From IMG/VR virus record IMGVR_UViG_3300031787_010453, positions 1 to 41,998 of that record: a stretch of DNA of 41,998 bases; one strand, 5' to 3'. Positions within the stretch are counted from its first letter, which is position 1. The number at the start of each line of letters is the position of its first letter. The DNA is from a virus. The notes below the pieces were generated by a model. It was given only the letters and a program-made list of their open reading frames with translations. It did no database searches and was not told the origin of the DNA. The position numbers and the translations under genes were made by a program. This document shows, one piece after another, positions 4,261 to 17,311 of this stretch.

Positions 4261-4764
4261 ATGAAAATAAAGAAATTTAACGAGGAGGTTGGTTTTGATG
4301 ATGAAGAGACAAGAGACAGATTAGAAATTGCTAATTTGAAAGGAGAATTAGAGCCGTCAAGTCCAACAATGAGAAACTTCTACATTCCAAATAATAAGGT
4401 TAATACTCAAACCGAACTAAAAAAAATATTTTTTAGATATCCAATTTTAGAGCAGTTTATGCAAGATTCAAAGTTGATAGAAGGTTCAAGACTTATTTCT
4501 TTTTACGCAACAAGTAAAGAACCAGTAGATGGTACAGAATATTATAGTCAATTATCCTTTGCTTATCATAATGGTGGATACTATATTGGTTCTATTCTAA
4601 GAGATAGATTTGAAGACAATGAGAGTAAATGGGTTACACACAATTTTACTTTTGATGAAATAGATGATATTTTTAACGTCACTGAATCATTCTTAAAGTG
4701 TTGTGTAAAACTTGGTGTTTTAGATAAAGAAGACTTAGGTCATTATAATTTTCTTTTGAATTAG
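4261..4764 (+). CDS. Leader-bearing protein, candidate head-packaged
   Basis: 167 residues. It begins MKIKKFNEEVGFDD; the basic/aromatic start ending in F-N-E matches the leader of the minus-strand cluster at 29057-39231, where the pattern is M-K-basic-aromatic-[LIF]-x-E. In T4, similar peptides target internal proteins into the prohead and are cut by the gp21 protease after [LI]-x-E. The body has no family I recognise. It has its own exact TTAATATATA motif directly upstream, so it is probably expressed late. It is the last gene before the RNA region. Confidence 0.7.
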   Translation: MKIKKFNEEVGFDDEETRDRLEIANLKGELEPSSPTMRNFYIPNNKVNTQTELKKIFFRYPILEQFMQDSKLIEGSRLISFYATSKEPVDGTEYYSQLSFAYHNGGYYIGSILRDRFEDNESKWVTHNFTFDEIDDIFNVTESFLKCCVKLGVLDKEDLGHYNFLLN

Positions 4765-4793
4765 TAAAAATATATTAAATTTTTTCAAAAAAA

Positions 4794-4825
4794 TTTGGTA
4801 GAATTATATCCTTACCTTATCTTTG
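4794..4825 (+). promoter_or_regulatory. Host-type promoter for tRNA-Tyr-like gene
   Basis: TTTG at 4794-4797, 20-base spacer, TATCTTTG at 4818-4825. The expected transcription start is only a few bases before the tRNA 5' end at 4839. Confidence 0.8.
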
Positions 4826-4838
4826 TATTCACAACGAT

Positions 4839-4926
4839 GGGGAAGTTCCAGAGCGGCAAATGGAGTTACATAGTAATGTGACTGGTCTCAAAAGATCTTC
4901 GGTGGTTCGAGTCCAACCCTTTCCCA
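4839..4926 (+). tRNA. tRNA-Tyr(GTA)-like, long variable arm, 8-base anticodon loop
   Basis: Class II tRNA shape. Acceptor GGGGAAG (4839-4845) pairs with CTTTCCC (4919-4925), discriminator A4926, no encoded CCA. D-arm CCA/TGG with a GG-containing loop; anticodon stem GTTAC/GTGAC; variable arm hairpin (GGTCT/AGATC); T-loop TTCGAGT. The body resembles bacterial tRNA-Tyr and the loop contains GTA, but the loop ATAGTAAT has eight bases instead of seven and the T stem has one mismatch/bulge. It may be functional with a shifted frame, or decayed. Isotype assignment is by resemblance only. Confidence 0.6.
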
Positions 4927-4945
4927 CAAAAAATTAAAAAAAAGA

Positions 4946-4977
4946 TTTGGTAGATTGAAAAAAAATACTTATCTTTG
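4946..4977 (+). promoter_or_regulatory. Host-type promoter for compact structured RNA
   Basis: TTTG at 4946-4949, 20-base spacer, TATCTTTG at 4970-4977. No open reading frame follows; the transcript would begin near 4983 and enter the structured element at 4984-5065. Confidence 0.8.
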
Positions 4978-4983
4978 TAAAAC

Positions 4984-5065
4984 AAATCACGGGTGGTTCC
5001 CTTAATAGTTAAGGCTGACCTTAAGCATCCACCGAGAGGTATACAGGGGCGAAAGTGATTTTTTT
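4984..5065 (+). ncRNA. Compact structured RNA of unknown class
   Basis: About 80 bases with their own promoter. A closing stem AAATCAC (4984-4990) / GTGATTT (5055-5061) runs into a T tract, which would also serve as terminator. Inside, GGTGG (4992-4996) pairs with CCACC (5029-5033). Within that, TTAAGG (5009-5014) can pair with CCTTAA on either side (5000-5005 or 5019-5024), giving two exclusive hairpins. GGGG (5046-5049) could pair with TTCCC (4997-5001) as a pseudoknot. It lacks tRNA features. I do not recognise the class. Confidence 0.6.
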
Positions 5066-5093
5066 AAGTTAAACAAAAATTTTTACAAAAAGA

Positions 5094-5125
5094 TTTGGTC
5101 AGAATAAAAAAAGTTCATATCTTTG
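5094..5125 (+). promoter_or_regulatory. Host-type promoter for initiator tRNA and large RNA
   Basis: TTTG at 5094-5097, 20-base spacer, TATCTTTG at 5118-5125. Transcription from here would run through the tRNA-Met at 5165 and the long non-coding region to the terminator at 6402-6431. Confidence 0.8.
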
Positions 5126-5164
5126 TAAAACAAAATTAGAAAAAAGAAATATAAAAATACACAT

Positions 5165-5237
5165 CGCGGGATAGAGCAGTCGGTAGCTCGCAAGGCTCAT
5201 AACCTTGAGGTCGTTGGTTCGAGTCCAGCTCCCGCTA
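5165..5237 (+). tRNA. tRNA-Met(CAT), initiator-like
   Basis: Acceptor CGCGGGA (5165-5171) pairs with TCCCGC; the first base C is opposite T, so pair 1-72 is unpaired, a hallmark of bacterial initiator tRNA. D-arm GAGC...GCTC matches the initiator form. Anticodon arm CAAGG-CTCATAA-CCTTG gives CAT. T-arm TTGG-TTCGAGT-CCAG. Discriminator A; CCA not encoded. The anticodon stem carries only two of the three G-C pairs typical of initiators (A-T at 29-41), so the initiator role is likely but not certain. Confidence 0.85.
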
Positions 5238-5242
5238 CAAAA

Positions 5243-6250
5243 GAGTTCTCAACGGAGAACAACGTTCTTTGAAATATTGATCTTTAACAGTCGGTTTCGA
5301 CTGACTGAAAAGAAGGGCGGCTTATAGTCCTTAAAATAAACCGTGAAAGCGGGATAAAGTGAACAGAATAGCTAAATCTGTTTGCGTCTTGAGTCTTCGG
5401 ATTTGAGGTCGAGTAAGCAAGTGGGACACCACAAAACCTTATTAGTCGAGGGTAACACTGTAGATGAACTGGATTTGTGACCAGGCAATTGTAGATTGTT
5501 TGGTTGACCTCGGAAGAGGAATAGGATTAACCCATAGGATTGTTGCAAGAAGTATCGACTCACCGGTTGTTATCATTGCGAAGTCCAACTCAAAAGGTGT
5601 CTTAAAGTTGAAAGACAATCAGGTGTACGGGTGGTGCTGTTACTTGACACTCTGTTCTCTACCAGGGGAATAGTGGTGAAGATATCTTGAAGAGTTGTAG
5701 TGGAGGCACTACACGGAGTTGTCCAGTATTCCTGAGTTCAAAAGATTTGGGAGCTGAGAGGTGACCACGACTTCTACAAATCTACAAGGCACTAAATTTC
5801 ACTATTAATGAAACATTTAAAAAGGAAATCGAAAGTGTCGCCTAGTTGCTAATGAAAGGTGACTACATAGTTATGGGATGTCCATAGCCACTGAAGCTCG
5901 AAAGGCCGATGTGATTTTACCGAAAAACTTATAGAGGGTCGAACCTCGAATCAGTCCGGCAGGGTTGAATAAGCAGATTAAGTAGAGAGTAGTTAGTAAC
6001 TCAAGAAGTGATTGGTCTAACCAATCGTCACTGACAGAATACTTCTCAAAAGGAAGTGGATAAGAAGGGAAACCATAATCTGACTAAAGTTCTGTCGTCA
6101 AAGGTGTAATCTCAACCTTTTTTGGTCGGTTCATAGGAACCTCTGAGAGCGAGACTCAGACCGACCTCGAAAGTTTTCGTAGTGGTTAACTTCCCTTTAA
6201 TTTAGGGAGTCTGTCTCAGACAGGGTGGATACTAAACTCCACACTAAAAA
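5243..6250 (+). ncRNA. Long structured non-coding RNA (GOLLD/ROOL-like candidate)
   Basis: About 1 kb between two tRNA genes with no credible coding frame, clearly richer in G and C than its surroundings and full of perfect short hairpins: GTTCTC/GAGAAC (5245-5260), CAGTCG/CGACTG (5288-5303), GTAGTG/CACTAC (5697-5712), GAGG/CCTC near 5935, GTGATTGGT/ACCAATC..TCAC (6008-6031), a three-way junction closed by GGTCGG/CCGACC (6124-6166) around TTC/GAA and TCTGAG/CTCAGA, CGAAA/TTTCG (6168-6179), CTGTC/GACAG near 6210 and GTGGA/TCCAC near 6226-6243. Large ornate phage RNAs such as GOLLD and ROOL are known to lie beside or around phage tRNAs. Membership in either class is inference; it may be a new class. 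Two small frames here (plus strand near 5464, minus near 5563) look spurious. Confidence 0.6.
5264..5289 (+). promoter_or_regulatory. boxA-like antitermination sites
   Basis: Two matches at the head of the long RNA: GTTCTTTGAA at 5264-5273 resembles the boxA in Bacteroidetes rRNA leaders, and TGATCTTTAACA at 5278-5289 matches 11 of 12 bases of the E. coli rrn boxA TGCTCTTTAACA. BoxA recruits NusB/S10 so that untranslated transcripts escape Rho. The placement before a 1-kb untranslated RNA is what one would expect. Confidence 0.6.
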
Positions 6251-6255
6251 ATCTT

Positions 6256-6361
6256 GGCCCGTTCGTCTAGTGGACTCTTAAAAGAGATACAGAAACTTCG
6301 TGAACGTAGAGGACGCCTAACTTTTCATTAGGAGACAGAGGTTCGAATCCTCTACGGGCTG
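6256..6361 (+). tRNA. tRNA-Glu-like gene with 34-base D-loop insertion
   Basis: Acceptor GGCCCGT (6256-6262) pairs with ACGGGCT (6354-6360); T-arm AGAGG-TTCGAAT-CCTCT (6337-6353) is perfect; anticodon arm CCTAA-CTTTTCA-TTAGG (6316-6332); D stem GTC (6265-6267) / GAC (6312-6314). The body (GTTCGTCTAGTGG) is tRNA-Glu-like. The D loop spans 44 bases instead of about 10 and contains its own hairpin CTCTT/AAGAG. By position the anticodon is TTT with C37; TTC is one base further. It is the 3' neighbour of the long RNA and probably co-transcribed with it. Confidence 0.6.
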
Positions 6362-6401
6362 CTAAAACAATGGTTTTTTGCTAAACTTACCATTTGTAGT
6401 C

Positions 6402-6431
6402 AAACCACCGACCTTCAACGGTGGTTTTTTT
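6402..6431 (+). terminator. Intrinsic terminator of the RNA operon
   Basis: Stem AAACCACCG (6402-6410) / CGGTGGTTT (6419-6427) with an 8-base loop, followed by a T tract. It ends three bases before the next tRNA, so that tRNA depends on read-through or processing. Confidence 0.8.
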
Positions 6432-6433
6432 AT

Positions 6434-6507
6434 GGTCTCTTAGCTCAGCAGGTTAGAGCAACTGACTCATAATCAGTAGGTCCACGGTTCGAGCCCGTGA
6501 GGGACCA
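6434..6507 (+). tRNA. tRNA with CAT anticodon (elongator Met or Ile2)
   Basis: Acceptor GGTCTCT (6434-6440) pairs with AGGGACC (6500-6506); D-arm GCTC/GAGC; anticodon arm ACTGA-CTCATAA-TCAGT gives CAT; T-arm CACGG-TTCGAGC-CCGTG. Discriminator A6507, no CCA encoded. A fully regular class I tRNA, unlike the tRNA-Glu-like gene before it. Elongator Met versus lysidine-modified Ile cannot be settled by eye. Confidence 0.9.
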
Positions 6508-6509
6508 CA

Positions 6510-6539
6510 AAATCCACTAAAAATTTTGGTGGATTTTTT
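6510..6539 (+). terminator. Intrinsic terminator after tRNA
   Basis: AAATCCAC (6510-6517) / GTGGATTT (6529-6536) with T tract. The TTTG of the next promoter (6525-6528) lies in its loop, so terminator and promoter overlap. Confidence 0.75.
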
Positions 6540-6555
6540 ATTTTTATTATCTTTG
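6525..6555 (+). promoter_or_regulatory. Host-type promoter (TTTG-19-TATCTTTG)
   Basis: TTTG 6525-6528, 19-base spacer, TATCTTTG 6548-6555, directly before the ATG at 6559. The mRNA would start at or next to the start codon, implying leaderless translation. Confidence 0.7.
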
Positions 6556-6558
6556 TGT

Positions 6559-6894
6559 ATGAAAAAACTAATTTTATTCTTTTCTCTTATTTTCTCTTAT
6601 AGTTTGCATTCACAGAGTTATAATTTAGACCATAATTTTAATTCTAAACCATTTGATAGAACTTGGGAAGTCACTATGAACATTATAGAGAATCAAGTAT
6701 TTTTCAATTGGGAAAAAGATATTGTAACATCGATAGTGATAAAATCAACAGATGATAATATCTTTTTTCCTAAGATAGATGCTTATATGACTTCTCAATT
6801 AACTTTGAATAATTTAAACTCTGGTAACTATAAAATCATTTTTTTAGATGATTGTAATGCAATTATGGATGAAAAACAATTTCAAATAAAATGA
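6559..6894 (+). CDS. Small secreted protein
   Basis: 111 residues. MKKLILFFSLIFSYSLHSQ is a clear signal peptide with Flavobacteria-style cleavage after HSQ, leaving a mature domain of about 92 residues rich in beta-forming residues. A longer frame would start at TTG 6526, but that lies inside the promoter and terminator, so the ATG at 6559 is chosen. Export to the periplasm or cell surface suggests a host-envelope role such as superinfection exclusion; that is inference only. The next gene overlaps by four bases. Confidence 0.7.
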   Translation: MKKLILFFSLIFSYSLHSQSYNLDHNFNSKPFDRTWEVTMNIIENQVFFNWEKDIVTSIVIKSTDDNIFFPKIDAYMTSQLTLNNLNSGNYKIIFLDDCNAIMDEKQFQIK

Positions 6895-8934: not shown

Positions 8935-11049
8935 ATGATGACAGATAAACACAATTTAGAAGGTAATGATTACACATCACCAGACATCAAAATGGCTTTA
9001 GAAGACGATGAAGATGATAGAGAATTTTCATCTAATAAGAAATCTGATAACAAGTCAAAGACACCTGTTTTAGATACTTATAGTAGAGATTTGACTAAGA
9101 TGGCGGAAGATGGTAGATTAGATCCAATAGTGGGTAGGGAAAAAGAAATTGAGAGAGTTTCTCAAATTCTATCTAGAAGAAAAAAAAATAATCCTATACT
9201 AATTGGTGAACCAGGCGTTGGTAAATCTTCAATTGCTGAGGGTTTGGCTTTAAGAATAGTTCAAAGAAAAGTTTCTCGTATTCTTTTTAACAAAAGAGTG
9301 GTGATGCTTGATTTAGCATCAATGGTTGCAGGAACTAAATATAGAGGTCAATTTGAAGAGAGAATTAAAGCACTTATGGCTGAGTTAGAAAAAGAGCCAG
9401 ATGTGATTCTTTTCATAGATGAGATTCACACCATGATTGGAGCAGGTGGTGCTTCTGGTTCACTTGATGCTTCTAATATGTTTAAGCCTGCTTTAGCCAG
9501 AGGTGAGATACAAATCATCGGTGCTACAACTTTAGATGAGTATAGAAAACACATTGAAAAAGATGGTGCTTTAGAAAGAAGATTTCAAAAAGTTATGGTA
9601 GAACCAGCAACCGCTGAAGAAACACTACAGATAATATCTAACATTAGAGAAAGGTATGAAGACCATCATAACGTTAAATATACAGAAGATGCTATCAAAG
9701 CTTGTGTCGAGTTAACAAATCGTTATATAACGGACAGATTTCTACCAGACAAAGCTATTGATGCGTTGGATGAAGCTGGTGCAAGAGTTCACATTTCTAA
9801 TATTGTAGTTCCAAAAGAAATTACTGATATTGAAAAAAAGATTTTTGAAATAAAAGAAAAAAAGAATGATGTAATTCGTTCTCAACGATATGAAGAAGCT
9901 GCTAAATTAAGAGACGTTGAAAGACAATTAAATGAGAGCTTAGAAAAGGCTAGAAAACAATGGGAAGAAGAATCTTCAAAAAATAGACAACTTGTTTCTG
10001 AAGATAATGTTGCAGAAGTTGTGGCGATGATGACTGGTATTCCAGTACAAAAAGTTTCTCAAAATGAGAATACTAAGCTATCAAAAATGTATGATATGAT
10101 TGCTGGTAGGGTGATTGGTCAAGACGATGCCGTTAAAAAAGTAGTAAAAGCTATTCAAAGAGGTAGAGTAGGTATGAAAGACCCTAACAAACCTGTATTT
10201 TCTGGAATTCTAATTGGAAATTCAGGTGTTGGAAAAACTGAATTAGCAAAGCAAATTGCAAAATATCTTTTTGATTCAGAAGATGCTCTTATTAGATTAG
10301 ATATGTCTGAATACATGGAAAAGATTTCTTTGACAAGAATTCAAGGTTCTGCTCCTGGTTACGTTGGATATGATGATTCGAATGTGTTAGATAAAATTAG
10401 AAGAAAGCCTTATTCAGTAGTTCTTTTTGATGAGATTGAAAAAGCTCACTCTGATATCTTCAACTTATTCCTACAGATGTTGGATGATGGTCATATGACT
10501 GACTCACATGGTAGAAAAGTTTCTTTTAAAAATTGTATAATTTTGATGACATCTAATGTTGGAACAAGAATTGTTAAGGATTTCGGTTCTGGTGTTGGAT
10601 TCTCAACTAAAGCAAAGAAAGAAAATAACACAGATGAAGTAAAATCTATTTTAGAAAAAGAGTTAAAAAAGAAATTTGCTCCTGAATTTATAAATAGAAT
10701 TGACGAAATTATTTATTTCAAAGATTTAGGTAAAGATGAAATTTTAAAAATCATTGATTTAGAATTAGCTAAAACAATTTCAAGAGCAAACGATTTAGGT
10801 TTTAAAATCACAATAACTGAAGAAATGAAAAGTCACCTTGTCGAGGTTGGTTATGATCCTCAATTTGGTGCTAGACCATTAAAAAGAGCTATTCAAAAAT
10901 GGATTGATGATCCTGTAACGGAATATATTATTGATAATAATCCAAAAGAAGGTTCAGAGTTGAATATTGATTATGATTCAGAAAAAGAAGATACAATAGT
11001 AACTGGTCCAAAAAAGAAATCTTCAAAAAAGAAAAAAACTGAAGAGTAA
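8935..11049 (+). CDS. clpC: ClpC-type AAA+ unfoldase lacking the N-domain
   Basis: 704 residues with two AAA+ modules. D1: Walker [10 protein letters not shown] (91-99), Walker B LFIDEIH (159-165). A UVR-like helical pair ([15 protein letters not shown], about 318-332) marks it as ClpC rather than ClpA. D2: Walker [10 protein letters not shown] (428-436), Walker [12 protein letters not shown] (495-505), sensor region TSNVG (539). The loop GVGF (553-556) corresponds to the hydrophobic-Gly-Phe loop that docks on ClpP, so it could use host ClpP. The usual N-terminal Clp repeat domain (about 150 residues) is replaced by a 45-residue acidic segment, so adaptor and substrate choice should differ from the host enzyme. 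Lys-rich tail. Followed by a terminator. Confidence 0.9.
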
Positions 11050-11491: not shown

Positions 11492-12404
11492 AGATTCAAA
11501 AATTTATGTAGCCGGTCACAACGGTATGGTTGGTTCTGCCATTGTTAGAAAACTTAAAGAATTAGGTTATACTAAGATTATAACCAAGAGTAGAAAAGAA
11601 TTGGATTTAACTAATCAATTTCAAGTAAATCATTTTTTTCATTTTGAAAAACCTGAATATGTATTTTTAGCAGCAGCTAAAGTTGGTGGTATTAAATCAA
11701 ACGATGATTTTAGAGCTGATTTTATATATGAAAATATAATGATTCAATCTAATATTATTAAAGCTTCTTTTGATAATAAAGTAAAAAAACTACTTTTTTT
11801 AGGTTCATCTTGTATTTATCCAAAGTTATGTCCTCAGCCAATTAAAGAAGAATACCTTCTTACTGCTCCGCTTGAAACTTCAAATGATGCTTATGCAATT
11901 GCAAAAATTGCTGGTATAAAAATGTGTCAGGATTTTAATAAACAATATGGAACAAATTATATTTCTGTTATGCCGACTAATCTTTATGGTCCAAATGATA
12001 ATTATGATTTGAATAACTCTCATGTTTTACCTGCATTAATTAGAAAATTTCACGAGGCTAAAATAGAAAATAAAGATAAAGTTGAAATCTGGGGAACTGG
12101 TTCTCCAATGAGAGAGTTTCTTTATGTTGATGATTTAGCACAAGCTTGTCATTATCTAATGTTGAACCATAATGGCTCGGAAATTATAAACGTTGGAACT
12201 GGAAAAGATATTTCAATAAAAGATTTAGCTTATATAGTCAAAGATGTATTAGAATATGAAGGTGATATATATTTTAATACAGATATGCCAGATGGAACTC
12301 CAAGAAAACTTTTAGATATTTCTAAGATATTAGAATTAGGATGGGAGCCAAAAACTGGTTTAAGAACCGGAATAAAAAAAACTTATTTAGATTATGTCAA
12401 ATAA
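11484..12404 (+). CDS. fcl: GDP-L-fucose synthase
   Basis: 306 residues, the usual length. NAD(P)-binding GHNGMVGS (11-18), catalytic Ser in GSSCIYP (107-113), Tyr137 and Lys141 in the Y-x3-K motif (YAIAK), and FLYVDDLA near 214. Converts GDP-4-keto-6-deoxymannose to GDP-L-fucose by epimerisation and NADPH-dependent reduction. The next gene, gmd, supplies its substrate and overlaps it by 11 bases, so the pair makes GDP-fucose for the fucosyltransferases at 14851 and 22087. Confidence 0.95.
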   Translation: MNKDSKIYVAGHNGMVGSAIVRKLKELGYTKIITKSRKELDLTNQFQVNHFFHFEKPEYVFLAAAKVGGIKSNDDFRADFIYENIMIQSNIIKASFDNKVKKLLFLGSSCIYPKLCPQPIKEEYLLTAPLETSNDAYAIAKIAGIKMCQDFNKQYGTNYISVMPTNLYGPNDNYDLNNSHVLPALIRKFHEAKIENKDKVEIWGTGSPMREFLYVDDLAQACHYLMLNHNGSEIINVGTGKDISIKDLAYIVKDVLEYEGDIYFNTDMPDGTPRKLLDISKILELGWEPKTGLRTGIKKTYLDYVK

Positions 12405-13440
12405 AATAGCACTAATTTCAGGAATAACAGGAATGGATGGCTCTCACTTAGCTGAGTTACTTTTAGAAAAAGGATATGAAGTACACGGCATTATTAGAAG
12501 AACATCAACTTTTAATACTGACAGAATTGATCACATTTTTGATAAATTAAAATTACACTACGGTGATGTCACTGATCCACTTGTTATATCAAACTTAATA
12601 TCACAGATACAACCAGATGAAATATACAATTTGGCAGCGCAATCTCATGTAAAGGTAAGTTTTGAAATACCTTACTATACAGCTCAAGTTGATGGTTTAG
12701 GAACTTTAGCAATACTTGAAGCCGTTAAAAATCATTGTCCTAAAGCAAGAATATATCAAGCCTCTACTTCAGAATTGTATGGTGGTATGGGCTATAATAT
12801 GCCCGATACTGGATATACAGAAGAATCATTTATGCACCCTAGAAGCCCATATGGTGTTGCAAAATTATATGGTCTTTGGATTACAAAAAACTATAGAGAG
12901 TCTTATGGTATGTACATTAGTAATGGAATTCTTTTCAATCACGAAGGCGAGCGAAGAGGTGAAACTTTTGTAACTCGTAAAATAACAAAAGCACTTGGTG
13001 TGATAAAGAATCATCTAGACCATCATCATACAGATTTTCCAATTCTAAAGTTAGGTAATCTTTACTCTAAAAGAGATTGGGGATATGCAAAAGATTATGT
13101 AGAAGGAATGTGGATGATGTTACAACAGGATGAACCTGGAGATTACGTTTTAGCTACTAATGAAACACACACTATAAAAGAATTTGTTGAAATAGCTTGT
13201 AAAGAATGTGGTTGGAATATAAATTGGATAGGAGAGGGTATTAATGAGAAAGGAATTTTAGATAATGGGTTAACAATAATTGAAATTGATGAGAGATATT
13301 ACAGACCGGCTGAAGTTGATGTTCTATTAGGTGATTATACAAAAGCTAAAGAAAAACTCGGTTGGAATCCAAAAACAAAGTTCAACGACTTAGTAAGAAT
13401 TATGATTCAACATGATATAAAAAATGAACAAACTCCATGA
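12394..13440 (+). CDS. gmd: GDP-mannose 4,6-dehydratase
   Basis: 348 residues, typical length. GITGMDGS (10-17) is the GMD form of the Rossmann glycine motif; STSELYG (124-130) and Y153-G-V-A-K157 hold the catalytic residues. Dehydrates GDP-mannose to GDP-4-keto-6-deoxy-D-mannose, the first committed step to GDP-fucose. It overlaps fcl at its 5' end and the next glycosyltransferase by four bases at its 3' end, so the genes form one operon. GDP-mannose itself must come from the host. Confidence 0.96.
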   Translation: MSNKIALISGITGMDGSHLAELLLEKGYEVHGIIRRTSTFNTDRIDHIFDKLKLHYGDVTDPLVISNLISQIQPDEIYNLAAQSHVKVSFEIPYYTAQVDGLGTLAILEAVKNHCPKARIYQASTSELYGGMGYNMPDTGYTEESFMHPRSPYGVAKLYGLWITKNYRESYGMYISNGILFNHEGERRGETFVTRKITKALGVIKNHLDHHHTDFPILKLGNLYSKRDWGYAKDYVEGMWMMLQQDEPGDYVLATNETHTIKEFVEIACKECGWNINWIGEGINEKGILDNGLTIIEIDERYYRPAEVDVLLGDYTKAKEKLGWNPKTKFNDLVRIMIQHDIKNEQTP

Positions 13441-14144
13441 TACATATACTTTGGTGTACTTTAAGACCACAGCAATTTAAAGAAATGCACGCTGAGTGGA
13501 TTAAAAGAGCTGATAAGCCAGAAAACATTCAGACATACGTTGCTGTAAATTGGGAACAACATTCAAATGAGTTAAAAGAATACTTATCTAAAAACTACTT
13601 AGTAACATTAAATACAAATAAGATAGGTGTTTGTTATCCATCTTATCAATTATCATCAGCACTTGGTATAAAAATGGGTAAATGTGAAAACCAAGATATA
13701 GTTATTTTTGCAAGTGATGATTTTATGGCACCTCAAAGCTGGGATGCTTATCTTATTTCAAAATTTGAAAATAAAGGTGATATTGGTTTAATGGTGAGAG
13801 ATGGTTATCAACTACCAGACTCATCAAATATGCTTCACCCAGCGATTACAATTCCAATTATGACATATGGTTGTTTACTTAAATTAAATAGAACTATTTA
13901 TCACCCGGCTTATAATCACATGTTTTCTGATTGTGAGTTGTATAACAATTTGAAAGATTTAAATTTACTATTTGATGATAGAATAAATGATGATACTACA
14001 TTTGAGCATTTACACTATGCTGCTGGTAAAAGACAAGCAGATGGTGCTGACCAAGCATATAATGGAAAGTGGCAGGAAGATGAACAAACTTGGAATATAA
14101 GAAAATTAATGCCAGTTGAAGAAAGGTTACTTACTAATAGATGA
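13437..14144 (+). CDS. Glycosyltransferase, GT-A type
   Basis: 235 residues. N-terminal strand ILWCTLRPQQF, a nucleotide-sugar-binding half, then IVIFASDDFMAP with an acidic pair (Asp94-Asp95) where GT-A enzymes carry the metal-binding DxD-like motif, followed by a His-containing acceptor half (FEHLHY). Four-base overlaps on both sides tie it to gmd and the next transferase. Donor and acceptor unknown. Confidence 0.65.
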   Translation: MIHILWCTLRPQQFKEMHAEWIKRADKPENIQTYVAVNWEQHSNELKEYLSKNYLVTLNTNKIGVCYPSYQLSSALGIKMGKCENQDIVIFASDDFMAPQSWDAYLISKFENKGDIGLMVRDGYQLPDSSNMLHPAITIPIMTYGCLLKLNRTIYHPAYNHMFSDCELYNNLKDLNLLFDDRINDDTTFEHLHYAAGKRQADGADQAYNGKWQEDEQTWNIRKLMPVEERLLTNR

Positions 14145-14854
14145 AAATTTTCACAACTATAAATCCATCAGAAAGCAGTATTCAAACTCAAACTGAAGCA
14201 CTAAGCTCTTGGAAAAGATATGATATTTATTCAATTAATACTAAAGATGAAATTGATAAAATATCATTAATTTATCCTTTTGTGAATTTTATAGAATCAG
14301 ATTCCACATACGAATATAATGGAAAAAAATTAATTAAGTTAAATGGAATACTTGATTCAATATCAAAAGTGTGTGATGGTAGTTGTAATGTTGCAATAGT
14401 AAATTCAGACATTATATTAAATAATAAAATTAAAAATTCAATATTTAATAAAAAATATGAAGATAGCTTAGTAATATCCACAAGATGGGAACTAAGTGAT
14501 GGTGAAACTTATCCTTTTAATTATGGTTATGATTTATTTATATTCAATACTAAATTTATAAATTTATTTAAAAATGATAAATATGTAATTGGTCTACCTT
14601 GGTGGGATTTTTGGCTACCTTGTATATCAATTAAAGCTGGACTAAAACTATATCACATAAAAAATCAATTAATTTATCATAGAACACATGAAACAAATTA
14701 CGATAAAGACATCTGGATTAAATTTGGTGAATACTTATATGATGATGTGATGTTAAAAATTTTACAAAATCCAATAAACGAAAATGTTTATTCTTTTTGC
14801 ATTGCAATGAAATCATTTATTGAAAAAAAACAAATTGATATAAAAATTAAATGA
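14141..14854 (+). CDS. Glycosyltransferase-like protein
   Basis: 237 residues with a GT-A-like first half: MKIFTTINP, then AIVNSDIIL (NSD at 88-90) in the DxD position, and PWWDFWLP (about 163-170) as in nucleotide-diphospho-sugar transferases of the same general fold. No transmembrane helix. Lies between a GT-A gene and a fucosyltransferase with 4-base overlaps at both ends. Probably adds one sugar of the same glycan. Confidence 0.55.
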   Translation: MKIFTTINPSESSIQTQTEALSSWKRYDIYSINTKDEIDKISLIYPFVNFIESDSTYEYNGKKLIKLNGILDSISKVCDGSCNVAIVNSDIILNNKIKNSIFNKKYEDSLVISTRWELSDGETYPFNYGYDLFIFNTKFINLFKNDKYVIGLPWWDFWLPCISIKAGLKLYHIKNQLIYHRTHETNYDKDIWIKFGEYLYDDVMLKILQNPINENVYSFCIAMKSFIEKKQIDIKIK

Positions 14855-15678
14855 AACAGAAAATAAAAATAAACTTCTCAGATTTTTGGGGTGGTTTTGA
14901 CAAAACAAATAACTACTTTTTTAATCTTTTGAAAGATGAATTCGATATTGAGATTTCAAATAACCCTGATTTTTTATTTTTTTCAGTTTTTGGAAATCAA
15001 CATCAATACTTTAATTGTAAAAAAATATTTTATACAGGTGAAAATGTTGCGCCACCTCTTGGTTATTGTGACTGGTCCTTTTCATTTGACTATTTAGATG
15101 ATTTTAGAAATTACAGACTACCCCACTATTTACTTTATGATGGTTATTATGAATTATCAAGACCAAAAATAATTGATGAGTCTATGGCAAATAGAAAGTT
15201 TTGTAACTTTGTAGCCTCCAATGGTGCTTGTGAAAAAAGAAATAGTTTTGTAACAAAATTATCTAAATATAAAAAAGTTGATTCTGGTGGTCGTTGGATG
15301 AATAATATCGGATATGCTGTTTCGGATAAAAGAAAATTTCAATCAGAATATAAATTTTCTATAGCTTTTGAAAATAATGCATATAGACCGGAATTTCCTG
15401 GTTATACAACAGAAAAAATTATGGAACCAATGACTGTCAACTCTATTCCTATTTACTGGGGAAATCCTTTAATACACCAGGAGTTTAATGTCAAATCATT
15501 TGTAAATTATTATGATTTTAGTGATGATGATGAAATGATAGAATTTATAATTGATTTAGATAATAATAATAGTAAATATTTAGACATGTTAAACCAACCA
15601 TGGTTTGATGACTATAATATACCAGAAAATAATAAGATTGAAAATATAAAATCTTTCTTATATAAAATCTTTAGCTAA
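14851..15678 (+). CDS. Alpha-1,3/4-fucosyltransferase (GT10 family)
   Basis: 275 residues. The C-terminal half has the GT10 donor-binding signature: YKFSIAFEN (about 167-175), then GYTTEKIMEP (184-193) and IPIYWG (199-204). An upstream VASNGACEKRNSF (121-133) matches the R-x-x-F segment of the family. It would transfer L-fucose from GDP-fucose, exactly the donor made by fcl and gmd in the same operon. No signal peptide or membrane anchor, so it should act in the cytoplasm. Confidence 0.85.
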   Translation: MKQKIKINFSDFWGGFDKTNNYFFNLLKDEFDIEISNNPDFLFFSVFGNQHQYFNCKKIFYTGENVAPPLGYCDWSFSFDYLDDFRNYRLPHYLLYDGYYELSRPKIIDESMANRKFCNFVASNGACEKRNSFVTKLSKYKKVDSGGRWMNNIGYAVSDKRKFQSEYKFSIAFENNAYRPEFPGYTTEKIMEPMTVNSIPIYWGNPLIHQEFNVKSFVNYYDFSDDDEMIEFIIDLDNNNSKYLDMLNQPWFDDYNIPENNKIENIKSFLYKIFS

Positions 15679-15727
15679 AAAAATCAGCATTTTTAAGAAG
15701 AAATAACTCAAAAAAAAAATTAAAAAA

Positions 15728-16288
15728 ATGAAATCTTTACAAGAAATTTATGAAAATTATTCTACTCCTGTCGGAGACGGTGATAAAGGAACACTACATA
15801 GCTATATACCCATTTACTCAGAACTTTTAGAAAAATATAGAAAAAATTCTAATTTTTTAGAAATTGGTGTTTCACTTGGTTATTCTATGAAAATGTGGAT
15901 CGATTATTTTATTGAATCTGAAATTATTGGTATAGAATTAAATCCTCAATATAGTAATCCAAATTGCATGATAAAAGAACTTATGGAAGATTCAAGATGT
16001 GAAATTTGGATAGCGGATGCTACTAGTGATGAAATCATAGATAAAATTGATAATAGACTATTTGATGTTATTATAGACGACGGTAGTCATATGCTTCAAG
16101 ACCAGATAAAATCCTTTCTACTATTGAAATCAAAAATGAAAGAAGGTGGTATCTATATAATAGAAGACATAGAAAATATTTCAAATAGTTCAGATGTTTT
16201 TTATAGCCTACACAATAATTGTGAAATAATTGATAACAGACATATTAAAGGTAGACATGATGACGTACTTGTTATTTATAGATTCTAA
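15728..16288 (+). CDS. SAM-dependent methyltransferase (class I)
   Basis: 186 residues. SAM-binding motif FLEIGVSLGYS (43-53), acidic ribose-binding residue in IIGIELNP (about 66-73), and FDVIIDDGSHM (112-122) as in Methyltransf_24 and cephalosporin-hydroxylase-like enzymes that modify sugars. Separated from the previous gene by a 50-base A-rich gap and followed by a typical A-rich leader before the epimerase. Expected to methylate a sugar of the glycan. Confidence 0.7.
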   Translation: MKSLQEIYENYSTPVGDGDKGTLHSYIPIYSELLEKYRKNSNFLEIGVSLGYSMKMWIDYFIESEIIGIELNPQYSNPNCMIKELMEDSRCEIWIADATSDEIIDKIDNRLFDVIIDDGSHMLQDQIKSFLLLKSKMKEGGIYIIEDIENISNSSDVFYSLHNNCEIIDNRHIKGRHDDVLVIYRF

Positions 16289-16303
16289 AAAATAAAAATA
16301 ATT

Positions 16304-17311
16304 ATGAAAAAAGTTTTGATTACGGGAATAGCTGGACTACTTGGAAGTAGATTAGCAGACTGGATTATTGAAAATAAACCAGAATATGAAATAGTTGGTA
16401 TAGATGATTTAAGTGGTGGATACTTAGAAAATGTCAATAGTAAAGTTAATTTCAAAAAAATTAATTTAGTAAATCAACAAACAGAAGTTAATTCATGTTT
16501 TGAAGAACACAAATTTGATTATGTTTTTCATTTTGCCGCTTATGCTGCTGAGGGTTTATCGCCTTTTATAAGAATGTATAATTACGACAATAATTTAAAA
16601 GCAACTGCTGGTATAGTAAATCAGTGTATAAAACATAATATTAAACGATTAGTATTTACATCTACCTTAGCGGTTTATGGTCACGGCTACGGTGGAATAT
16701 TTGATGAAGAGCAAATACCTAAACCAATCGATCCATATGGTGTGGCAAAGTATGCATGTGAAATGGACATTCAAATTGCGGGAGAACAACATGGTTTAGA
16801 TTGGTGTATCATAAGACCACATAATGTTTATGGGTTAAAACAAAATATCTGGGATAAATATAGAAATGTTTTAGGTATTTGGATGTTTCAGTATTTAAAT
16901 AATGAACCAATGTCAATTTTTGGAACAGGTGAACAAACAAGAGCTTTCAGTTTTATTGACGATAGTTTAGAACCGCTGTGGAATTCCGCAGTAAAAGAAG
17001 AGGCATCTAAACAAATCATAAACTTAGGCGGTATAGAAGAATATTCAATCAATGAAGCTAACACGATTCTAAGAAAGGTAATTGGAGGTGATATAGATAT
17101 ACAATATAAAGAAGCTAGACATGAAGTCAAACATTCGATTCCTACTTTTCAAAAGTCTATAGATATATTAGGATTTGAACATAAAACATCACTAGAGGAT
17201 GGTCTAAATAGAATGTGGAACTGGGCAAAAAATCAACCAATAAGAAGTAGATTTGTTTGGGATGAATATGAAATTGAAAAAGGTATTTACTCCTTCTGGA
17301 AAAATAAATAA
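16304..17311 (+). CDS. NAD-dependent sugar epimerase/dehydratase (extended SDR)
   Basis: 335 residues. Glycine motif GIAGLLGS (8-15), HFAAYAAEG (76-84), Ser120/Thr121 in TSTLAVYG, and Tyr145-x3-Lys149 (YGVAK). The architecture is that of UDP-glucose 4-epimerase-like enzymes; the C-terminal substrate-binding half (GTGEQTRAFSFIDD) fits too. Specific substrate not assignable from sequence. Adds a second nucleotide-sugar route beside GDP-fucose. Confidence 0.8.
   Translation: MKKVLITGIAGLLGSRLADWIIENKPEYEIVGIDDLSGGYLENVNSKVNFKKINLVNQQTEVNSCFEEHKFDYVFHFAAYAAEGLSPFIRMYNYDNNLKATAGIVNQCIKHNIKRLVFTSTLAVYGHGYGGIFDEEQIPKPIDPYGVAKYACEMDIQIAGEQHGLDWCIIRPHNVYGLKQNIWDKYRNVLGIWMFQYLNNEPMSIFGTGEQTRAFSFIDDSLEPLWNSAVKEEASKQIINLGGIEEYSINEANTILRKVIGGDIDIQYKEARHEVKHSIPTFQKSIDILGFEHKTSLEDGLNRMWNWAKNQPIRSRFVWDEYEIEKGIYSFWKNK

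What the first reader, a model, noticed from the sequence alone, without database searches (positions are those of the whole stretch)
5243..6250. One-kilobase structured non-coding RNA between phage tRNAs
A long stretch without coding frames, richer in G/C than its surroundings, holds at least nine perfect hairpins and a three-way junction (6124-6166). It follows a strong promoter and an initiator-like tRNA and ends in a tRNA-Glu-like gene. GOLLD and ROOL, giant ornate RNAs of phages, show the same tRNA association and size range. This may be a divergent member or a new class in a Bacteroidetes phage.
Basis: partly seen in the sequence, partly recalled or inferred. Interest (0 to 1): 0.88.

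Follow-up and report, generated by a model that had tools for sequence, protein, structure and literature searches.

The report
Giant phage RNA with rRNA-type leader
The stretch is a true member of GOLLD, a known family of very large phage RNAs of unknown function, and in its Bacteroidota-type phage relatives it is almost always preceded by the short signal (boxA) that bacteria use to transcribe and fold their own ribosomal RNA, which suggests the phage borrows that machinery to make it.

Summary
With its 5' domain the RNA spans about 5315-6118. It lies in a fragment related to 634- and 642-kb Mahaphage genomes of Bacteroidetes. It is a new member of GOLLD, not a new class; 26 relatives give 192 consensus pairs, 152 with compensatory changes.

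New here is the leader. Just 5' of the RNA are a small hairpin (5245-5260) and GTTCTTTGAAATATTGA (5264-5280). That 17-mer is also the leader of Bacteroidota 16S and 23S rRNA genes and contains boxA, the NusB-S10 site. boxA precedes GOLLD in 23 of 28 independent window-like clusters, and in 31 of 33 further clusters fetched by an unrelated pattern (shuffles: 0.1). GTTCTTTG is the commonest leader 8-mer. Two non-Bacteroidota-type clusters carry the E. coli-type boxA; Mycobacterium- and Bacillus-type GOLLDs do not.

Best reading: the phage uses the host's rRNA-specific Nus complex to transcribe, and perhaps fold, its giant RNA. Binding and expression are untested. No held paper links GOLLD with boxA.

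The parts
5094..5125 (+). Bacteroidota-type promoter, TTTG (5094-5097), 20-nt spacer, TAtcTTTG (5118-5125), for tRNA-Met + GOLLD
   Evidence: Sequence; the same element lies about 21-30 nt upstream of boxA in many relatives
5165..5238 (+). tRNA-Met(CAU), initiator-like (C1-A72), upstream of the GOLLD leader
   Evidence: ARAGORN, Rfam tRNA 62 bits
5245..5260 (+). boxB-like hairpin GTTCTC-AACG-GAGAAC directly upstream of boxA
   Evidence: Inverted repeat I11; a hairpin at this place in 15 of 29 clusters against 0.6 expected, with differing stem sequences
5264..5280 (+). boxA and extension GTTCTTTGAAATATTGA, identical to Bacteroidota 16S/23S rRNA leaders
5315..5676 (+). GOLLD 5' domain (conserved core AAATAAAC..GAAA..GGATAAAGTG)
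   Evidence: Alignment A1 of 26 clusters and its covarying fold
5677..6118 (+). GOLLD 3' domain (Rfam RF02032 match 5714-6118)
   Evidence: cmscan 284 bits; nhmmer
5776..5826 (+). GOLLD linker, short here and without tRNA (approximate limits); inside the cage in the solved env-38 structure
   Evidence: Unconserved A/U-rich part of the Rfam alignment and of A1; PMC12286853
6124..6166 (+). Three-way junction: probably a shortened tRNA-like remnant (acceptor-like stem GGTCGGT/ACCGACC)
   Evidence: The same place in L002 holds a longer tRNA-like sequence with the same outer stem; kept in L011, L038, L090
6173..6252 (+). Conserved multi-hairpin element of unknown role between GOLLD and tRNA-Glu
   Evidence: Present in the window cluster and in L002
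6256..6362 (+). tRNA-Glu-like gene with an insertion of about 40 nt on its D-arm side
   Evidence: ARAGORN intron mode, anticodon TTC, insertion 41 nt at position 26; Rfam tRNA 23.5 bits for the 3' part, below cut-off
6434..6508 (+). tRNA with anticodon CAU
   Evidence: ARAGORN, Rfam 69 bits

Best explanation
A GOLLD RNA of about 800 nt in a huge Bacteroidota-type phage, transcribed with an upstream initiator-like tRNA-Met from a Bacteroidota promoter. The leader carries a boxB-like hairpin and a host-rRNA-type boxA. The nascent boxA most likely recruits the host NusB-S10(NusE)-NusA-NusG(-SuhB) complex to RNA polymerase. This would keep the long untranslated RNA from being cut short by Rho and help it fold co-transcriptionally, as it does for pre-rRNA. 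The flanking tRNAs are then cut out by tRNA-processing enzymes, which trims the GOLLD ends, and the RNA probably assembles into a homomultimeric cage as env-38 GOLLD does. Shown here: GOLLD identity, covarying fold, the boxA leader and its conservation, tRNA flanks. Inferred: Nus-complex recruitment, antitermination/folding role, end trimming, cage. What the cage is for remains unknown.
For: GOLLD. boxA: the window's exact 17-mer lies 86-217 nt upstream of 16S in Bacteroides, Chitinophaga and other contigs, and 82 nt upstream of 23S in Chryseobacterium. boxA core in 23/28 window-like clusters (shuffles 0.14, antisense 0, control windows 15/1093). A second set of 33 independent clusters, fetched with a 5'-domain pattern that does not contain boxA: 31/33 (shuffles 0.1, controls 10/1170). 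Without any prior motif, GTTCTTTG, GTTCTTTGA and GTTCTTTGAA are the commonest 8-, 9- and 10-mers of the leaders. The published gamma-proteobacterial consensus is GYTCTTTAANA (PMC5725501); two divergent clusters carry GTTCTTTAACA (L022, L078). Promoter and hairpin spacing. boxA-to-core distance varies from 37 to 120 nt, as for a leader signal rather than part of the fold. In these phages boxA also precedes some tRNA genes. A tRNA begins 7-19 nt after GOLLD in 13 of 52 testable clusters.
Against: No expression or binding data. In E. coli the main role of boxA at rRNA has been argued to be maturation rather than antitermination (PMC4807359), so the exact job is open. Five window-like clusters lack a strict match (L003, L008, L041, L056, L079), though L008/L041 (GTTCTTAGA) and L079 (GTTCTTTTA) differ by one base. 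Mycobacterium phage (L016), Bacillus-like (L064) and other divergent GOLLDs lack boxA nearby, so it is not a universal part of GOLLD. RNAalifold pairs boxA CUUU with an invariant AAAG near the 3' end, but AAAG is also invariant in GOLLDs without boxA and that helix shows no covariation.
Confidence: 0.78

Rival explanations
1. An ordinary GOLLD in which the GTTCTTTGA element is a structural 5' strand of the RNA (pairing with the 3' end), and its likeness to rRNA boxA is convergence.
For: RNAalifold pairs CUUU of the element with AAAG at alignment columns 1018-1021.
Against: The pairs show no compensatory change; AAAG is equally invariant in GOLLDs without the element; distance to the core varies 37-120 nt; the window matches rRNA leaders over 17 nt, not 4; the element also precedes tRNA genes.
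Confidence: 0.08
2. The boxA leader acts as a decoy: abundant GOLLD transcripts titrate NusB-S10 away from host rRNA and reduce ribosome synthesis during infection.
For: Overexpressed nut RNA is reported to titrate Nus factors and lower rRNA (PMC4807359); a giant phage ncRNA can be the most abundant phage transcript (ICP1, PMC7567579).
Against: boxA lies in cis in front of the RNA and of some tRNA genes, where a cis role suffices; nothing here shows an effect on the host.
Confidence: 0.1
3. The element is part of a phage promoter or start-site signal rather than an RNA signal.
For: Fairly constant distance of about 21-30 nt from the TAnnTTTG element in many clusters.
Against: In the window and L002 it lies well downstream of the promoter, after a tRNA gene; spacing is wide in others (up to 94 nt); it equals an rRNA leader signal.
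Confidence: 0.04

Closest known systems
GOLLD RNA (Rfam RF02032; env-38, Lactobacillales and Mycobacterium examples)
   Same: Full 3' domain model at 284 bits, 5' domain upstream, phage location beside tRNAs, about 800 nt; like env-38 it follows a tRNA-Met (PMC12286853)
   Different: Bacteroidota-type phage; short linker without tRNA; boxB-boxA leader, which I found in no held paper on GOLLD
Bacterial rRNA operon leaders (boxB-boxA)
   Same: Hairpin then GTTCTTTGAAATATTGA in front of a long untranslated structured RNA, with tRNAs in the same transcript
   Different: The RNA is a phage giant RNA; no boxC or leader-trailer helix was established
Other uses of boxA: lambda nut sites, suhB, CRISPR-array leaders
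   Same: boxA outside rRNA
   Different: lambda nut sites also need phage protein N; suhB is an mRNA (PMC5725501); CRISPR-array use is known to me mainly from memory (the key paper is not held)
ROOL RNA; ICP1 800-nt ncRNA
   Same: Size class, phage location, no known function
   Different: No ROOL match here; the ICP1 region has no boxA at its 5' side and no GOLLD match

Membership tests
GOLLD (RF02032) | Covariance model score over curated cut-off, full model | tested here: met
   284 bits vs 150, model 1-416
GOLLD (RF02032) | Conserved 3' domain with less conserved 5' domain | tested here: met
   Both domains aligned in 26 clusters; 152/192 pairs with compensatory change
GOLLD (RF02032) | Encoded by phage/prophage, near tRNAs | tested here: met
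   IMG/VR record, tRNAs on both sides
GOLLD (RF02032) | Abundant RNA during lysis | not testable with these tools
   No transcript data
GOLLD (RF02032) | 14-mer RNA cage | not testable with these tools
   Known for env-38 (PMC12286853); the intermolecular bridges were not mapped here
ROOL, OLE, HEARO | Covariance model match | tested here: not met
   None up to E = 5 in 4700-6600
boxA (Nus-complex site) | Sequence of host rRNA boxA | tested here: met
   17-mer identical to Bacteroidota 16S/23S leaders
boxA (Nus-complex site) | Conserved position in the leader of the transcript | tested here: met
   23/28 and 31/33 independent clusters
boxA (Nus-complex site) | Binds NusB-S10; antitermination | not testable with these tools
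   Needs binding and reporter assays

The most novel reading that the evidence does not exclude
Huge and other Bacteroidota-type phages run their stable-RNA genes (GOLLD, and at least some tRNA genes) under the host's rRNA-specific Nus/boxA system, so GOLLD is made and folded like a ribosomal RNA. The E. coli-type boxA in two divergent GOLLD clusters suggests the arrangement arose, or was tuned to the host, more than once.
Probability: 0.6. Interest if true: 0.75.

Novelty: new variant of a known kind. Interest (0 to 1): 0.62.

Why it matters
GOLLD forms one of the largest RNA-only assemblies known, yet nothing is known of its purpose and little of how it is made. A near-universal rRNA-type leader in more than 50 independent phage clusters gives a testable link to a host machine (NusB-S10-NusA-NusG-SuhB). 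It explains how an untranslated RNA of this length could escape Rho, offers a folding chaperone for it, and gives a sequence handle for finding and expressing such RNAs. The same signal in front of phage tRNA genes suggests a general rule for stable-RNA operons of these phages.

Tried and rejected
New RNA class: rejected by the Rfam match. Decayed gene: no long frame, conserved RNA fold. boxA as part of the GOLLD fold: unlikely. ICP1's abundant 800-nt ncRNA as a further boxA-led case: no boxA and no GOLLD match. GOLLD in cellular genomes: none in 199 Lactobacillales genomes with RF02032 (control genomes also silent, so uninformative) and none in 396 Bacteroidota genomes with the exact 5'-domain pattern. 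ROOL leaders could not be tested: the genome-search service failed each time. Blasting L006 and L022 GOLLD against named phages found only the two megaphages or nothing. Hosts of L078 and L022 could not be named. Lactobacillales prototype GOLLDs were not available, so their leaders were not examined. MAFFT aligned the short boxB hairpins poorly, so I scored them one by one instead.

Full report
WHAT IS THERE. The window is an IMG/VR virus record of 41,998 bases. Between a tRNA-Met (5165-5238) and a tRNA-Glu-like gene (6256-6362) lies a non-coding stretch richer in G+C than its surroundings that folds better than shuffled sequence (z = -4.3). cmscan matches 5714-6118 to the complete Rfam GOLLD model at 284 bits, cut-off 150, E 3e-80. 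No ROOL, OLE or HEARO match appears even at E <= 5.

RELATIVES. A pattern from the GOLLD 3' domain fetched 110 viral loci; all but two of them match the 3' domain by nhmmer. Grouped at 85% identity, those with enough upstream sequence, with the window, form 36 clusters. The nearest named relatives are the uncultured phages LR745206.1 (634,780 bp) and LR756502.1 (642,428 bp); window genes a few kb further downstream also match the same part of those genomes. The huge-phage paper reports circular genomes of 634 and 642 kb; its genomes above 634 kb fall in the Mahaphage clade and are predicted to replicate in Bacteroidetes (PMC7162821). I take these to be the same genomes from their lengths. In an alignment of 26 clusters, 152 of 192 consensus pairs show compensatory changes. 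This covers the 5' domain too, which the Rfam model does not include.

THE LEADER. Directly 5' of the RNA the window reads GTTCTC-AACG-GAGAAC (5245-5260), then GTTCTTTGAAATATTGA (5264-5280). A scan of bacterial genomes for this exact 17-mer found it 86-217 nt upstream of the 16S start in Bacteroides, Chitinophaga and other contigs, mostly of Bacteroidota, and 82 nt upstream of a 23S start in Chryseobacterium. The 5' part is boxA, the NusB-NusE(S10) site; the published gamma-proteobacterial consensus is GYTCTTTAANA (PMC5725501).

STATISTICS. In window-like clusters the core GTTCTTT[AG]A lies just upstream of GOLLD in 23 of 28 (dinucleotide shuffles mean 0.14, antisense 0, other windows of the same loci 15 of 1093). 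Some of those control hits are themselves boxA copies in front of phage tRNA genes. Because this motif was noticed in the first set, I fetched a second set with a 5'-domain pattern that contains no boxA. Of 33 clusters independent of the first set, 31 have it (shuffles mean 0.1, controls 10 of 1170). Counting all words without any prior motif, GTTCTTTG, GTTCTTTGA and GTTCTTTGAA are the commonest 8-, 9- and 10-mers of 59 leaders. A Bacteroidota-type TAnnTTTG element ends about 21-30 nt upstream of boxA in many clusters. A small hairpin lies just upstream in 15 of 29 (0.6 expected), with differing stem sequences. Among eight divergent clusters two carry the E. coli-type GTTCTTTAACA (L022, L078). 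A relative of L022 (L099) has GTTCTTTTACA at the same place. Mycobacterium phage MrMagoo (L016), Bacillus-like L064 and others have none nearby, most of them within tRNA arrays.

HOW IT PROBABLY WORKS. An untranslated RNA of about 800 nt would be exposed to Rho. In E. coli, boxA recruits NusB-S10, NusA, NusG and SuhB to the polymerase; this can block Rho, and it promotes correct rRNA folding and maturation, which one study considers the main role (PMC4807359). Placing boxA at the head of GOLLD would give the phage RNA the same service. RNAalifold pairs CUUU of boxA with an invariant AAAG near the 3' end. I do not believe this pairing: AAAG is equally invariant in GOLLDs without boxA, and the distance from boxA to the core varies from 37 to 120 nt. 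Downstream, a tRNA starts 7-19 nt after the GOLLD end in 13 of 52 testable clusters, so RNase P cutting at that tRNA would release the 3' end there (inferred). In the window this place holds the three-way junction 6124-6166, probably the remnant of a tRNA-like element still longer in L002. By analogy with env-38 (14-mer cage; PMC12286853) the RNA probably forms a cage; this was not tested.

NOVELTY. As an RNA this is a new member of GOLLD. The rRNA-type leader is, as far as the held literature shows, undescribed: the only papers with both words were unrelated plant papers. Absence from that library is not proof. The survey of Nus targets says it did not consider non-coding RNAs (PMC5725501).

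LIMITS. No transcript, binding or mutant data exist here. Hosts of most loci are unknown and are inferred from promoter type and kinship. Lactobacillales GOLLDs and ROOL leaders were not examined.

Noticed in passing
4839-4926: tRNA-Tyr-like gene missed by default ARAGORN; relaxed mode gives an 8-nt anticodon loop (agta). In the window and L002/L011 the anticodon arm can pair as 6 bp with a 6-nt loop, with an A-T/G-C change in the extra pair.
   Followed up: partly
6256-6362: tRNA-Glu body with a 41-nt insertion on the D-arm side, nearly identical in L011, L038 and L090, and a different shorter insertion in L002; too short for a group I intron.
   Followed up: partly
4986-5062: Structured element after its own promoter (ATCAC...GTGAT ends), neither a recognised tRNA nor an Rfam family; role unknown.
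   Followed up: partly
L004, L006, L009, L062, L068, L079, L080 and others: boxA also stands directly in front of tRNA genes, and in L046, L062 and L080 just before what look like ORF starts (GTTCTTTGACATATAGGAGAAAATAAATTATG), reminiscent of boxA control of suhB.
   Followed up: no
L078, about 108-181 after the start of the GOLLD 3' domain (oriented): A tRNA that ARAGORN calls Pyl (normally a CTA anticodon, so a possible amber suppressor) lies inside the GOLLD linker; L087 has tRNA-Asn there.
   Followed up: no
36 GOLLD clusters: 14 clusters, the window included, have a CAU-anticodon tRNA near GOLLD, as does env-38; not tested against chance.
   Followed up: no
8935-11049 and 12394-17311: ATP-dependent protease gene and nucleotide-sugar epimerase genes related to GDP-mannose dehydratase/fucose synthase of cyanophages.
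   Followed up: no
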